A DNA stretch of 44,770 nucleotides, taken from Ignavibacteriales bacterium. Lineage in GTDB: Bacteria; Bacteroidota; Ignavibacteria; UBA10030. Positions 2,382 to 28,563 of this stretch are shown in pieces. Positions within the stretch are counted from its first letter, which is position 1. Each line of letters opens with the position of its first letter. The position numbers were made by a program, and so were the translations under genes. The stretch spans positions 1 through 44,770 of the forward strand of contig JACPSI010000076.1 in the NCBI GenBank assembly GCA_016193365.1, in the 5' to 3' direction. Below the pieces are notes generated by a model. It worked only from the letters and a program-made list of their open reading frames with translations. It was not told the DNA's origin and searched no databases.

Positions 2382-3923
2382 TTATTCCATCATTTCAAAC
2401 TCTGGTTCCTTCGGCCTGATGTCATCATGCATGCGACGGAGAGCCTGGTAGGCGTTGTCACTTCCGCGTTTCGAAGCATCGCGGTACAATCGCGACGCCT
2501 CCCCTCTGTTTTGGGCCATGCCGATTCCCTTTTCATGGCAATAACCTAAACCCACCTGCGCAAGGATAGAGCCTTCTTCATAAGCCCGGCGCAGAATTTC
2601 GAGGTTGCTGCCAAGATGTTCACCGCGCGCAATGGCGAGTGTCGCAAGTCTTAATCGCGCCTCGCGATTTCCCCGACGTACGGCTTTTTCAAAGTGATCT
2701 TCGGACTTGGCGCGATCCTGCTTGACCCAGCGCCCGGATTGATAACACATGCCAAGCTCAATCATCGCTTCCGTATTTCCGCTTTCCGCCGCAGACTCAA
2801 GCAAATGAACGGCCTGTTCTCCGCTTAGTCGGCGCTCGATTTGAGCCGCTACCAAACCCGCCCATACAACCCGGGCTTCCGGGTCACCCGCTTTCGACTT
2901 CCGATCCAGACCCTCGGCAAAGCTCTTTTCATTGGTAACATTCCAAAGAAATTCATATGCGCGCGGTGATTCCAGTCGGAGCGCGCGAAGATAATAGGAT
3001 GCTGCTTTGAAAGGGTCTCGCTCAACGTCAACGCCCCGCTCGTAGAGCCGGCCGAGCAACGTCAACGCCTCCGGACTTCCCCCTTCCGCCTCATTCTCGA
3101 GAGCTGTGAATACTACCGATCGATTATTGACCTGCGAATTCTTGTTTTCAGAAAGAACTATCGAAGAAGTGAATGCCCTGTGATATGACGTATCGATAAC
3201 GGCTTTCAGCGACGGGCTTGCTTCCCGAAAAACATCGCCGACCAGCGTCGAATCATTCGCCTGCCAGGAGGTATCAATATCGAAATCCAGGAAAATAGGC
3301 CGGAACTTGCGGGCTGTGCTGTCCCCTGGAGATCGCCGTCCTTTTTTCTCCTGAAGTGTATCTCCCTGTATACCTCGCTTTTCAAATTCATGGAATACTT
3401 TTTTCGCGGGTTCGAAGTTGTTTTCGGCAGCTTGTTTGATCAACACATAAGCCCTCGACCAATCTCTCGGTACAATCAAATCCTCGGTGAGGAGCAATCC
3501 CTGTACATACTGCGCGTCGGACATGTTTCTTCCGGCGGCGTGTTTGAAGTTTTTGTACGCCTCAAACGGGTTCCACCCAACGCCGACGCCGTTGAGAAGA
3601 AGAATTCCCAGATTGTACCGCGCCAGGAGAAAATCCTGCCCCGCGGACTTCTGGATCCAGTACGCTCCTTTCAATGTATCCTGCAAGAATCCGGTTCCCA
3701 TAAGGTAGCGGAGGCCCAACTCGTGCTGTGCTGCGGCGTCGCCGCCGTTGGCTTTCTGCACAAGCTCGAAGCCCTCCCGCAGCTGGTAGTCGAGGTTCGA
3801 TTGCTTGATCATCGACTGAACGCTTGAAGGAGCGGGGGCGGTTTTTCTCTGCGCCTCGGCGATGTTGAACAACAAGCCGGACAGCAAAAGAATTACAGTT
3901 ATTGAAGGCTTGACGGAATGCAT
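2382..3923 (-). CDS. Secreted Sel1-repeat (SLR) protein
   Basis: 513 residues starting with a signal peptide (hydrophobic VILLLSGLLF, then AEA-Q, about residues 1-25). Alpha-solenoid Sel1-like repeats follow, recognisable by AxxxLGxxYxxGxGVxxDxxxAxxYxxxAAxxG-type spacing: about residues 60-175, again about 280-345, and at least three more from about 385 to 500. A low-similarity linker separates the first two blocks. Sel1 proteins are scaffolds for protein-protein contacts; the signal peptide places this one in the periplasm or envelope. It is probably transcribed separately from the amidohydrolase downstream. The start codon lies only 30 nt from the divergent transposase start at 3954, so the two share a very short divergent region. 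Partner and exact role unknown. Confidence 0.85.
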   Translation of the reverse strand: MHSVKPSITVILLLSGLLFNIAEAQRKTAPAPSSVQSMIKQSNLDYQLREGFELVQKANGGDAAAQHELGLRYLMGTGFLQDTLKGAYWIQKSAGQDFLLARYNLGILLLNGVGVGWNPFEAYKNFKHAAGRNMSDAQYVQGLLLTEDLIVPRDWSRAYVLIKQAAENNFEPAKKVFHEFEKRGIQGDTLQEKKGRRSPGDSTARKFRPIFLDFDIDTSWQANDSTLVGDVFREASPSLKAVIDTSYHRAFTSSIVLSENKNSQVNNRSVVFTALENEAEGGSPEALTLLGRLYERGVDVERDPFKAASYYLRALRLESPRAYEFLWNVTNEKSFAEGLDRKSKAGDPEARVVWAGLVAAQIERRLSGEQAVHLLESAAESGNTEAMIELGMCYQSGRWVKQDRAKSEDHFEKAVRRGNREARLRLATLAIARGEHLGSNLEILRRAYEEGSILAQVGLGYCHEKGIGMAQNRGEASRLYRDASKRGSDNAYQALRRMHDDIRPKEPEFEMME

Positions 3924-3953: not shown

Positions 3954-4568
3954 ATGTCCGAAGATTTCTACTACCGGCGTCTCCCACATTTTCAACCGTT
4001 CGATGCAACCTTCTTTGTCACATTTCGGTTGAAGGATTCACTTCCGAGCGAAGTATTGTTGGAGCTCCAAGAGCTGCGGGAAACCGAAAAACAAACGCTC
4101 GAGAACCTCAAAACGAAGCCGACTGAATCAAAGAACCTCCGAGAACTTCAGTACAGATACTTTGGACGATTTGACGATTACCTTGACCGAGTTTCTACGG
4201 GCCCATTCTGGCTTAAAGATCCGGTAATAGCTGAAATCGTTGCCGAAGCAATTCATTTTCGAAATTCAAAAATGTACGACCTTCTTGCCTTTTGTGTTAT
4301 GCCAAATCATGTCCATTTGATATTCGAGCCAATATATCAAACAGAAGATGGCAATGTAGGGCGACGAGGCTCGTCGCCCTACATTGTTACGAATATTCTC
4401 GAAAATCTTAAATGGTTTACTGCATTCAAAGCCAATCAAGTACTCAGCCGTTCGGGGGCTTTTTGGCAGCACGAAAGCTACGACCACGTTATTCGCGAAA
4501 ACGAGCTGGAAAACCTAGTTCGCTATGTCATCGATAATCCCGTCAAGGCCGGCCTTGTCAAACACTGA
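3954..4568 (+). CDS. REP-associated tyrosine transposase (RAYT), C-terminus cut by a TGA
   Basis: Y1-transposase family protein of the REP-associated type, which nicks single-stranded REP hairpins with a catalytic tyrosine. Seen: an N-terminal YYRRLPHFQPFDATFFVTFRL block, the HUH-type motif MPNHVHLIF, and the tyrosine region SYDHVIRENELENLVRYV. I start it at the ATG at 3954 because the ATG at 3918 overlaps the divergent Sel1 gene and adds a non-family leader. The stop is a TGA after ...GLVKH, but the same frame continues as RDWKWTYVKNDL... to a TAG at 4623-4625, which is the usual family ending. So a Trp codon probably mutated to TGA, removing about 18 residues. The gene also contains a perfect 35-bp palindrome (4352-4386) that adds the stretch NVGRRGSSPYIV. 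Activity uncertain. Confidence 0.85.
   Translation: MSEDFYYRRLPHFQPFDATFFVTFRLKDSLPSEVLLELQELRETEKQTLENLKTKPTESKNLRELQYRYFGRFDDYLDRVSTGPFWLKDPVIAEIVAEAIHFRNSKMYDLLAFCVMPNHVHLIFEPIYQTEDGNVGRRGSSPYIVTNILENLKWFTAFKANQVLSRSGAFWQHESYDHVIRENELENLVRYVIDNPVKAGLVKH
4352..4386. repeat. Perfect 35-bp palindrome inside the RAYT gene
   Basis: Two 17-nt arms (left arm CAATGTAGGGCGACGAG) are exact reverse complements around a single G. The palindrome lies in frame in the transposase gene, between the HUH motif and the tyrosine helix. Its outer TGTAGGG...CCCTACA matches the palindrome at 19690-19725, suggesting a common mobile hairpin family that may be a substrate of such transposases. Confidence 0.85.
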
Positions 4569-19689: not shown

Positions 19690-19725
19690 ATCTGTAGGGA
19701 CGTTCAATTGAACGTCCCTACAGAT
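19690..19725. repeat. Perfect 36-bp palindrome
   Basis: Two 18-nt arms (left ATCTGTAGGGACGTTCAA) are exact reverse complements with no loop. Its ends TGTAGGG/CCCTACA match the palindrome in the RAYT gene at 4352. It lies in the gap after the phospholipase and could act as terminator as well as mobile hairpin. Confidence 0.85.
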
Positions 19726-20479: not shown

Positions 20480-20815
20480 GTCCATTTCTTTGTCCGTTCC
20501 GAAAAACGGAACGAGATCTCGATCCTTCGGATCGGACTCGCCCACCAGCCCGCCGAGCGGTCTGGCGGGAAGAAATGGACGAAAGTCCCGCTTTACGGGA
20601 TGGCGCGAATCGTAATTTTTTCGAGCGCCAAAAGGGCGTATGTCGAAATCGGAACGCACTTTGAGCCTCTACCCCGCGTGCCCGAAATCTCCGTGCGTAA
20701 AGTGATGAGAAAATGTTAACCATTGTCAGAATTGCACGTCGATTTAATGTCCCGCGTATATCGGCTCCAACGCACAAACCCGGCCGATTTCGACGCGCCC
20801 CCACAGCCATGGCTC
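20480..20815. repeat. Composite hairpin-repeat cluster (reverse-oriented modules)
   Basis: Outer arms GTCCATTTCTT (20480-20490) and AAGAAATGGAC (20570-20580) pair across a roughly 80-nt loop that itself holds hairpins (GTTCCG-AAAAA-CGGAAC; CGATCCTTCGGATCG; CCCGCC...GGCGGG). Between about 20710 and 20815, the reverse strand carries GTCGAAATCGGCC, GTGCGTTGGAGCCGA, CGCGGGAC and AATTCTGA in the order seen in the 26.99-28.49 kb array. This fills the 510-nt gap between 20407 and 20918; no gene is supported there. Confidence 0.6.
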
Positions 20816-26724: not shown

Positions 26725-27168
26725 ATGACAAAACGAGCCATGAAGAAATATCCTCTGGCGCGGGTTGAATCTCGCATCTTTTCCCTGCGCGGACAAAAAG
26801 TTCTTTTGGACAGCGATCTTGCCACTATCTATGGGATCCCAACATTCAGGCTTAATGAGGCTGTGAAGCGAAATCGGGACCGATTTCCAGAAGACTTCGT
26901 GTTCCAGATAACTGCTGGAGAGCATCAGGGTTTGACATCGCAAATTGCGATATCAAAGACGGGCCGGGGACGGTTCGACAAAGGTCTCACATTAATTCTA
27001 AGACCCTCTTGTCCCGAAGCGATCCCTTCGGGGCACGTGCGTAGAGCCGAAAACCGCGGGAGTTTTGAGCCTATGCTTTGGTTGAGCTCGGGCTTGTGCG
27101 TTGGCGGATGTAGGTGGGAGTCGAAATCGACGGGTTTGTGTGTAGGCGACGTAATCGTGGGACTTTAA
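26725..27168 (+). pseudogene. ORF6N-domain gene truncated by the repeat array
   Basis: GGAGGTTTTAG precedes the ATG. Residues about 11-80 form an ORF6N domain (VESRIFSLRGQKVLLDSDLATIYGI..., FPEDFVFQIT), a putative DNA-binding domain of phage and mobile-element proteins. The normal continuation, with GGRRYLPYAFTEQG, is missing: after ISKTGRGR the sequence passes at about 26970 into the repeat array, and the remaining 60 codons are repeat-derived. The intact family is usually longer than 150 residues. Confidence 0.7.
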
Positions 27169-27231
27169 TCGAGCGGCAGTTCTGATGACAGCTTGAGATT
27201 CTACATTACTTTGATGCCGCGAGATTTCGGG

Positions 27232-27270
27232 CCTGCCTGCCGGACGAACGTCGTCCGATCGGTAGGCAGG
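27232..27270. repeat. CCTGCC palindrome with nested hairpin
   Basis: CCTGCCTGCCGG pairs with CGGTAGGCAGG, with inner GGACGA-ACG-TCGTCC. A reverse-orientation relative lies at 28177-28215 in the same array. Confidence 0.65.
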
Positions 27271-27364
27271 GAAGCGGGCAGGGCCGTAACAGTGTGTTCG
27301 ATTTCGACAATTTCTCCCGCTCTAAAAAAATACGATTGGCGGGATGCCGTACAGCGGCATTTCG

Positions 27365-27391
27365 GTTCCTTTCTTTTTTAAAGAAAGGAAC
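27365..27391. repeat. Array hairpin H1
   Basis: Arms GTTCCTTTCTTT and AAAGAAAGGAAC (12 bp, exact) with loop TTT. Shares the TTTCTTT/AAAGAAA core with H2-H5. Confidence 0.8.
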
Positions 27392-27470
27392 GACACGACG
27401 TCAGTCGTCGCTGATGAGAAAAGAGAAAAGTCACTATAGTACAAAGCAGAGCATTCCGCCTGGCGGCGGG

Positions 27471-27499
27471 TCTACTTTCTTTTAAAAAGAAAGTAGACG
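27471..27499. repeat. Array hairpin H2
   Basis: Arms GTCTACTTTCTTTT and AAAAGAAAGTAGAC (14 bp, exact). Preceded by ATTCCGCCTGGCGGCGG and followed by GGAAAGAAA, as in H4. Differs from H4 by a T-A pair where H4 has C-G. Confidence 0.85.
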
Positions 27500-27885
27500 G
27501 AAAGAAACTGTCGAAATTGGAACACGCGTTCAGAGAAGGAGATTTGGTGTCAATCGGATTCGATAGCCAGAACGACAGTTCAGCCTTCACTCAAACCCGA
27601 CCAATTTCGACCCCCCGCCCGACCGAACTATGGTCGGCTTTTGACGGTCGTTCGGGCGGGCAGTCCCACAGCCATCGCCTTCGCGCAGGCCGAAAACATA
27701 AAGTAAGGGCAAGTGCGTGAGCTGCACGTGGGATGAGTCGAAATCGGAGGCAAGAGGGTTGGATGATCTGTGCTAGATTTAATCGAGGGGCAGCTTCTTG
27801 CCCCGAGATTTACTCCAAGGAACTAGTTCACTCAACGAATCCTTCTAACTTGTTTGTGTGTTCAGATTTCGACAAATTTTCTTTT

Positions 27886-27914
27886 CCCCATTTCTTTTCT
27901 GAAAAGAAATGGGG
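27886..27914. repeat. Array hairpin H3
   Basis: Arms CCCCATTTCTTTT and AAAAGAAATGGGG (13 bp, exact), loop CTG. Identical to H5. Confidence 0.85.
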
Positions 27915-27975
27915 ACCCTCCACGGTTAGTGGAAGAAGAAATGATACCCAGTTAGTGCATTCCGCCTGGCGGCGG

Positions 27976-28004
27976 GTCCACTTTCTTTAGAAAAGAAAGT
28001 GGAC
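27976..28004. repeat. Array hairpin H4
   Basis: Arms GTCCACTTTCTTT and AAAGAAAGTGGAC (13 bp, exact), loop AGA. The C-G pair replaces the T-A pair of H2. Confidence 0.85.
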
Positions 28005-28176
28005 GGAAAGAAAATGTCGAAATTGGAAGGCGCATTCGGATAAGGAAAGTAATGACAATCGGATTCGACAACCGGAACAGCGGTCAGCCGTCGCTCAAAC
28101 CCGACCAATTTCGACCCCCCGCCCGACCGAACAATGGTCAGCTTTGAAAGGTCGTTCGGGCGGGCAGCCCCACAGC

Positions 28177-28215
28177 CCTGCCTACCGAACGGACGACGTT
28201 CGTCCGGCAGGCAGG
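28177..28215. repeat. CCTGCC palindrome with nested hairpin, reverse orientation
   Basis: CCTGCCTACCG...CGGCAGGCAGG enclosing GGACGA-CGT-TCGTCC; it is the reverse-orientation relative of 27232-27270. Confidence 0.65.
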
Positions 28216-28444
28216 CTTCGCCCTCGCGAAATCCCAAGAGAAGCAAAAGCAAAGGGCAGTGGGTTGGCGGCAAGTGTGTTGAGTCGAAATGGTCGGCACG
28301 TGCGTGGAGCCGACAACCGCGGGACTTTAATCGAGGGGCAGTTCTGATCGAGGGTTGAGTCTCCACAAACCTTTTGTTGCCCCGAGATTTCGGGGACGCG
28401 GGGAAGCGACGTCACGAGTGTTCCATTTCGACAAGTTTTCTTTT

Positions 28445-28473
28445 CCCCATTTCTTTTCTGAAAAGAAATGGGG
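28445..28473. repeat. Array hairpin H5
   Basis: Same sequence as H3, 559 nt downstream; both follow TTTCGACAA and TTTTCTTTT. It marks the end of the array, about 90 nt before the SIMPL-domain gene. Confidence 0.85.
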
Positions 28474-28563
28474 CACCCGACGTGAGTCGTCATAGTTGAT
28501 CCTCAGCCGTAGAATGTTCTCAGTGAAAGTTTAATGTGCTTTAACCAAAATAGGAACGAAAAA

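What the first reader, a model, noticed from the sequence alone, without database searches (positions are those of the whole stretch)
27365..28473. Hairpin family with base-pair-preserving (compensatory) changes
Seen: five hairpins share the core TTTCTTT/AAAGAAA but have different, always paired, outer arms (GTTCC/GGAAC, GTCTAC/GTAGAC, GTCCAC/GTGGAC, CCCCA/TGGGG twice). H2 and H4 have the same flanks and differ by a T-A to C-G pair exchange. This argues for selection on the stem, as single-stranded DNA or RNA. Inferred: targets of a mobile-element nuclease, a structured RNA, or a protein-binding array.
Basis: seen in the sequence. Interest (0 to 1): 0.7.

Follow-up and report, generated by a model that had tools for sequence, protein, structure and literature searches.

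The report
Widespread triplex-type hairpins ending palindromic repeats
The five hairpins are real, and they belong to a family of DNA hairpins that marks the ends of repeated, non-coding, palindromic elements in many unrelated bacteria and some archaea; the stems, a second mirror-image purine stretch beside them and, in many relatives, the loop all keep matching while their sequences change, which points to a conserved unusual DNA fold rather than a conserved sequence.

Summary
In detail: five perfect hairpins with core TTTCTTT/AAAGAAA (0.02 expected in the window) and varying, paired outer arms. Across 24 distinct copies from this genome and relatives, six outer pairs change on both sides (60 cells against 23 in shuffles, 0/500). 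They are not a loose array: with a small hairpin, a second purine tract (R2) and a long-stem body they form two ~480-530 bp palindromic units (H2..H3, H4..H5; fold z -8.7 and -6.9) plus a partial third. The same module, [small hairpin]-[pyrimidine tract-loop-purine tract R1-outer arm]-[R2]-[body], occurs in Proteobacteria, Firmicutes, Bacteroidota, CPR bacteria and archaea, up to 493 copies per genome; a reversed control gives almost none. R2 is the mirror image of R1 (asymmetric R1: 34 exact mirrors, 0 direct copies, of 72), as in an antiparallel purine triplex, and loops of 5+ nt pair with sequence after R2 (91/133 against 18 shuffled). In some Gammaproteobacteria the body is the orphan Rfam family TwoAYGGAY. 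Closest known kind: PIT/BoxC/TM_ECO intrastrand-triplex repeats. I read it as a new A/T-type composite variant, probably the end of a non-autonomous mobile DNA element. The mobilising protein and the fold in vivo are not shown.

The parts
27003..27407 (-). partial unit: body block 27120-27308 (GTCGAAAT...ATTTCGAC) plus hairpin H1; left end not recognised, lies in the broken ORF6N gene
27365..27391 (-). hairpin H1 (GTTCCTTTCTTT/AAAGAAAGGAAC); its R2 tract is interrupted by an insertion that a copy on contig C21 (L044 ~3162) shares
27396..27407 (-). hp0, small hairpin beside H1 (CGACGTCAGTCG)
   Evidence: read directly
27456..27469 (+). hp0, small hairpin before H2 (CCGCCTGGCGGCGG)
   Evidence: fold
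27470..27498 (+). hairpin H2: outer arm GTCTAC/GTAGAC, Y tract TTTCTTTT, R1 AAAAGAAAG
27500..27507 (+). R2, second purine tract GAAAGAAA, mirror of R1
27510..27873 (.). body of unit 1: blocks 27510-27611 and 27737-27873 (GTCGAAAT...ATTTCGAC) joined by a GC-rich hairpin 27614-27665; folds with both ends into one long cruciform arm
   Evidence: z -8.70
27877..27885 (-). R2 of H3 (AAAAGAAAA on the - strand)
27885..27915 (-). hairpin H3 (CCCCA type), facing H2
27920..27932 (-). hp0 beside H3 (CCACTAACCGTGG on the - strand)
   Evidence: alignment
27962..27975 (+). hp0 before H4
   Evidence: fold
27976..28004 (+). hairpin H4: outer arm GTCCAC/GTGGAC
28006..28014 (+). R2 of H4, GAAAGAAAA, exact mirror of R1 AAAAGAAAG
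28016..28432 (.). body of unit 2: blocks 28016-28115 and 28283-28432 joined by a GC-rich hairpin (28118-28164) and a REP-like palindrome
   Evidence: z -6.94
28436..28444 (-). R2 of H5 (AAAAGAAAA on the - strand)
28445..28473 (-). hairpin H5 (CCCCA type), facing H4
28478..28489 (-). hp0 beside H5 (CGACTCACGTCG on the - strand)

Best explanation
The hairpins are the end modules of non-coding palindromic DNA elements, and the module is conserved as a fold. SHOWN by sequence comparison: each module is a small hairpin, then a hairpin whose pyrimidine tract (Y, typically TTTCTTT) pairs with a purine tract (R1) and whose outer arm varies but stays paired, then a second purine tract (R2) that is the mirror image of R1, then the body. 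In many relatives the hairpin loop also pairs with the bases just after R2. Modules often come in inward-facing pairs 420-700 bp apart, and the window's two units each fold into one long cruciform arm. INFERRED: when the strand is single (lagging-strand replication, extruded cruciform, or an excision intermediate) it folds so that R2 lies antiparallel on the Y:R1 stem as a short purine-motif triplex (A.A-T, G.G-C), clamped in long-loop versions by loop pairing; the hairpin with paired outer arm is probably an alternative state, since a linker of 1-2 nt cannot carry R2 past a paired outer arm into register. A protein that reads this fold moves or copies the element in trans. INFERRED, weaker: the preference for sites just after genes reflects tolerated insertion, not gene control.
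For: Outer-arm covariation in the clade and at free positions in the broad set (88, 75, 97 and 79 of 101 Watson-Crick against 55, 42, 45 and 33 shuffled). In a Selenomonadales MAG searched without requiring R2, all 32 modules have R2; R1-tail and R2-head A-runs agree in 32/32 (shuffle mean 16.5, max 26). Over 189 distinct modules, asymmetric R1: 34 exact mirrors, 0 exact direct copies, of 72; generic 7-mer test: mirror 50 against 18 shuffled, direct 39 against 34. Mixed-purine cases: AAGAGAAA with AAAGAGAA (L346), AAAGAGAA with AAGAGAAA (L366). Loop with post-R2 pairing of 4+ nt: 91/133 against 18 (max 31) for loops of 5+ nt. Copies per genome up to 493 against 0 reversed. Inward pairs in Caballeronia and Paraburkholderia as in the window. 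A ~650 bp unit present at one site in two Caballeronia species and absent in two. Window units fold with z -8.7 and -6.9.
Against: No mobilising protein identified and no target duplication resolved. The window's H3/H5 class has R2 head 4 against R1 tail 3, so the mirror is imperfect there, and 38 of 72 asymmetric modules are not exact mirrors. Window loops are 1-3 nt, too short for loop pairing. In-register triplex and paired outer arm cannot form together. For the G/C cousin TM_ECO, in vivo DMS footprinting gave no sign of stable triplex (PMC4666352).
Confidence: 0.6

Rival explanations
1. A structured RNA: the module is a 3'-UTR or sRNA hairpin/H-type pseudoknot (S1 12 bp, S2 4-5 bp, A-rich L3) that acts on transcripts, for example in 3'-end stability or termination, and TwoAYGGAY is its body.
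For: S2 pairing; TwoAYGGAY was predicted as an RNA and lies next to the module in 17/24 hits; modules lie 6-40 nt after same-strand stop codons in 10 of 23 cases in G249 and 8 nt after two tRNA genes in L202.
Against: Paired modules sit on opposite strands, so no transcript carries both; R2 keeps a mirror register, and purine-motif triplex is reported not to form in RNA (cited in PMC4666352); no T-run after the window hairpins; TM_ECO/PIT had no terminator or promoter activity.
Confidence: 0.2
2. REP/RAYT system: hairpins mobilised by a Y1 (IS200-like) transposase as in REPINs.
For: Own genome has 8 Y1_Tnp matches and GTAG-type palindromes beside the array (27231-27278, 28169-28216).
Against: Genomes with 238, 97 and 71 module copies (G249, G251, G254) have no Y1_Tnp match; no GTAG tag at the foot of these hairpins; unit size 450-600 bp. 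These are MAGs, so absence is not certain.
Confidence: 0.07
3. No selected function: palindromic repeats that spread passively by replication slippage, recombination and template switching, which themselves make stems perfect and compensate changes.
For: Perfect stems; hybrid units in Caballeronia NK8 with different bodies on the same ends; TM_ECO linked to genome instability.
Against: Template switching can repair stems but does not explain mirror R1/R2, loop pairing across two intervening segments, or the same architecture in many phyla with a reversed control near zero.
Confidence: 0.1

Closest known systems
PIT elements / BoxC / TM_ECO intrastrand-triplex repeats (Hoyne et al. 2000; Holder et al. 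2015, PMC4666352)
   Same: Pyrimidine tract, loop, purine tract, loop, second purine tract on one strand; intergenic, many copies, some in inverted pairs; variable between relatives.
   Different: TM_ECO is G/C-rich (CCCTCNCCC N3-6 GGGNGAGGG N3 GGGNGAGGG), and the paper as read here describes no paired outer arm, loop clamp or body; here the tract is A/T-rich with a covarying outer arm, loop pairing in long-loop members, and a 100-500 bp palindromic body.
TwoAYGGAY RNA (Rfam RF01731; Weinberg et al. 2010, PMC2864571)
   Same: In Psychromonas, a Halothiobacillaceae MAG, Pseudomonas punonensis and Hydrocarboniphaga it is the body directly after the module (17/24 hits, always the same side; control windows 1/96).
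   Different: The window and most other carrier genomes tested have no RF01731 match; the family model does not include the hairpin/R2 module.
REP/REPIN/BIME palindromes and MITEs
   Same: Intergenic, palindromic, many copies, inverted pairs, presence/absence differences.
   Different: No GTAG tag at these hairpins, no consistent Y1 transposase, no target duplication resolved, conserved mirror purine tract.

Membership tests
PIT/TM_ECO-type intrastrand triplex repeat | Y-loop-R-loop-R on one strand | tested here: met
PIT/TM_ECO-type intrastrand triplex repeat | R2 antiparallel (mirror) to R1 | tested here: met
   family-wide: 32/32 run lengths; 34 mirror against 0 direct. In the window met for H2/H4, off by one A for H3/H5
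PIT/TM_ECO-type intrastrand triplex repeat | TM_ECO consensus CCCTCNCCC...GGGNGAGGG | tested here: not met
   tract is TTTCTTT/AAAGAAA; so not TM_ECO itself, only the same kind
PIT/TM_ECO-type intrastrand triplex repeat | isolated strand folds as triplex | not testable with these tools
   needs CD/NMR
Rfam TwoAYGGAY | match to RF01731 in the window genome | tested here: not met
REP/RAYT | GTAG tag at hairpin foot | tested here: not met
   flanks read directly
REP/RAYT | Y1_Tnp gene in carrier genomes | tested here: not met
   present in own genome, absent in G249, G251, G254
MITE | inverted ends around a non-coding body | tested here: met
MITE | empty site in relatives | tested here: met
   Caballeronia; not shown for the window array
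MITE | target site duplication and parent transposase | tested here: inconclusive
   flanks too diverged; no parent found
intrinsic terminator | G+C stem followed by T-run | tested here: not met
   A-rich, T-poor 3' side (read directly)
type III toxin-antitoxin RNA repeats / integron attC | adjacent toxin gene / integrase | not tested
   no search made

The most novel reading that the evidence does not exclude
A superfamily of DNA elements in bacteria and archaea whose ends are recognised by a conserved non-B fold (mirror-purine third strand plus loop clamp on a covarying hairpin) rather than by sequence, served by a shared, still unknown machinery, with TwoAYGGAY and the window's GTCGAAAT blocks as interchangeable bodies.
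Probability: 0.3. Interest if true: 0.85.

Novelty: new variant of a known kind. Interest (0 to 1): 0.66.

Why it matters
Whether intrastrand triplex folds matter in living bacteria has been open since PIT/BoxC elements were described; here evolution itself seems to keep the third strand in mirror register, which is a testable sign of use. It also gives an orphan Rfam 'cis-regulatory RNA' (TwoAYGGAY) a likely identity as the body of a repeated DNA element, and accounts for hundreds of intergenic palindromes per genome in some Burkholderiaceae and Selenomonadales.

Tried and rejected
Rfam on the window: nothing at gathering score, only chance hits at E up to 5. Phage records: no match; viral contigs: 4 matches of a strict form, so not a phage hallmark. 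Plasmid collection: 13 records with the motif, mostly Burkholderiaceae megaplasmids, no annotated feature under it. The loose pattern TTTCTTTN2-8AAAGAAA is noisy in A/T-rich relatives; requiring R2 fixes this. Literature search for the core sequence found no description, in a library that lacks most subscription papers. The array is not next to the SIMPL gene in the same-genus genome G001, but the other flank is not syntenic, so I do not call that an empty site. A 7-mer direct-copy count looked high (39) but equals its shuffle (34), because the sequence after R2 often starts with G. Burkholderia contigs guessed by number were tiny.

Full report
WHAT IS THERE. The shared core occurs 5 times in the window against 0.02 expected and 17 times in the 3.16 Mb genome against 0 for the reversed pattern; most copies are in clusters on contigs C38 (this window, 5) and C21 (6), with single copies elsewhere. 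H3 and H5 are 98% identical duplicates.

Each hairpin is only part of a module. On one side lies a small hairpin (hp0: CCGCCTGGCGGCGG, CCACTAACCGTGG and the like), on the other a second purine tract R2 (GAAAGAAA or AAAAGAAA) and then GTCGAAAT, the start of a 100-190 bp block that ends in ATTTCGAC. H2 faces H3 and H4 faces H5, so the array is two whole units (27456-27932 and 27962-28490) and one partial unit ending in H1. Folded as single DNA strands, both units form one long arm with the two end hairpins standing beside it (z -8.7 and -6.9).

COVARIATION. On 24 distinct copies from this genome, its genus and its family, six outer pairs change on both sides, 60 cells against 23 in shuffles (0/500), covariation score 0.424 against 0.136, and no slid version exceeds 0.106. 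Most copies were chosen by the core only, so the outer arms are free.

BREADTH. In 36 of these genomes the pattern occurs 1 to 493 times per genome while the reversed pattern is nearly absent; these genomes were picked because they had a hit. In the window's own phylum it is patchy, 15 of 198 genomes. It was not found in phage records.

THREE INDEPENDENT CONSTRAINTS. (1) Outer arm: 88, 75, 97 and 79 of 101 Watson-Crick pairs at four free positions against 55, 42, 45 and 33 when shuffled. (2) Mirror: in a Selenomonadales MAG, where R2 was not part of the search, all 32 modules have R2, and the A-run after the G in R1 equals the A-run before the G in R2 in 32/32. In Quinella R1 tails of 3, 4 and 5 A go with R2 heads of 3, 4 and 5. 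Over 189 distinct modules, asymmetric R1 tracts give 34 exact mirrors and no exact direct copy, and mixed-purine tracts are mirrored too, AAGAGAAA with AAAGAGAA and AAAGAGAA with AAGAGAAA. (3) Loop: where the loop has 5 or more nt, it pairs by 4+ nt with the bases after R2 in 91 of 133 distinct modules, against 18 (max 31) when shuffled; the short-loop class, to which the window belongs, shows none.

READING. Mirror register is what a purine-motif triplex needs: third strand antiparallel to the purine strand, A on A-T and G on G-C. I therefore place the module with the potential intrastrand triplex repeats (PIT/BoxC/TM_ECO; PMC4666352), as an A/T-type variant. The paired outer arm and an in-register third strand cannot coexist with a 1-2 nt linker (my geometric inference), so at least two states are expected. 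The fold has not been observed; for TM_ECO it forms in vitro but was not seen in vivo.

BODY. In Psychromonas, a Halothiobacillaceae MAG, Pseudomonas punonensis and Hydrocarboniphaga the body right after R2 matches Rfam TwoAYGGAY; 17 of 24 testable hits have the module within 190 nt, always on the same side, against 1 of 96 control windows. The window has no such match; its blocks hold the same place. In Caballeronia the body is a ~500 bp palindrome.

MOBILITY. In Caballeronia a unit of about 650 bp lies between an ABC permease gene and dhaK in two species and is missing there in two others; the flanks are too diverged to read a target duplication. Hybrid units carry different bodies between the same ends. 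Y1/RAYT transposases are absent from three high-copy genomes, so they are not the common partner. No partner is known.

POSITION. In the Selenomonadales MAG, 16 of 23 modules follow a same-strand gene, 10 within 40 nt of its stop (crude ORF calls). This fits tolerated insertion as well as an RNA role, and is the best support for the RNA rival.

LIMITS. Many genomes are MAGs; the broad sets are ascertained by the core; shuffles ignore phylogeny, so the numbers are guides, not probabilities. The literature search covered open-licence papers only.

Noticed in passing
window 26725-27168: ORF6N-domain gene (PF10543) runs into the array's left edge and seems to lack its usual C-terminal part; the rest is not seen beyond the array.
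   Followed up: partly
window 27231-27278 and 28169-28216: 48-nt near-identical REP-like palindromes in inverted orientation (CCTGCCTGCCGGACG...GGTAGGCAGG, 92% complementary), of the GTAG kind; the genome has 8 Y1_Tnp matches.
   Followed up: partly
window 20642-20794: A solitary GTCGAAAT...ATTTCGAC block without any TTTCTTT hairpin.
   Followed up: no
window 4352-4386 and 19690-19725: Perfect 17-18 bp palindromes with GTAGGG (e.g. ATCTGTAGGGACGTTCAA/TTGAACGTCCCTACAGAT), seen also in L044, L054 and L118: another repeat family.
   Followed up: no
window 27309-27364 and L044 ~3110-3161: The same kind of insertion, with its own hairpin (TGCCGCTGTACGGCA), splits R2 of H1 and of a copy on contig C21.
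   Followed up: no
L202 3849 and 4217: In a Clostridium MAG two modules start 8 nt after the 3' end of tRNA genes.
   Followed up: no
L373 23459-23965 (Caballeronia sp. NK8 plasmid): Hybrid unit: the two ends carry different body types, so ends and bodies recombine.
   Followed up: partly
L349, L357: TwoAYGGAY copies in Hydrocarboniphaga whose end module has an altered loop with a shared insert near GGATCGATGCA, as if rebuilt by a deletion or template switch.
   Followed up: no
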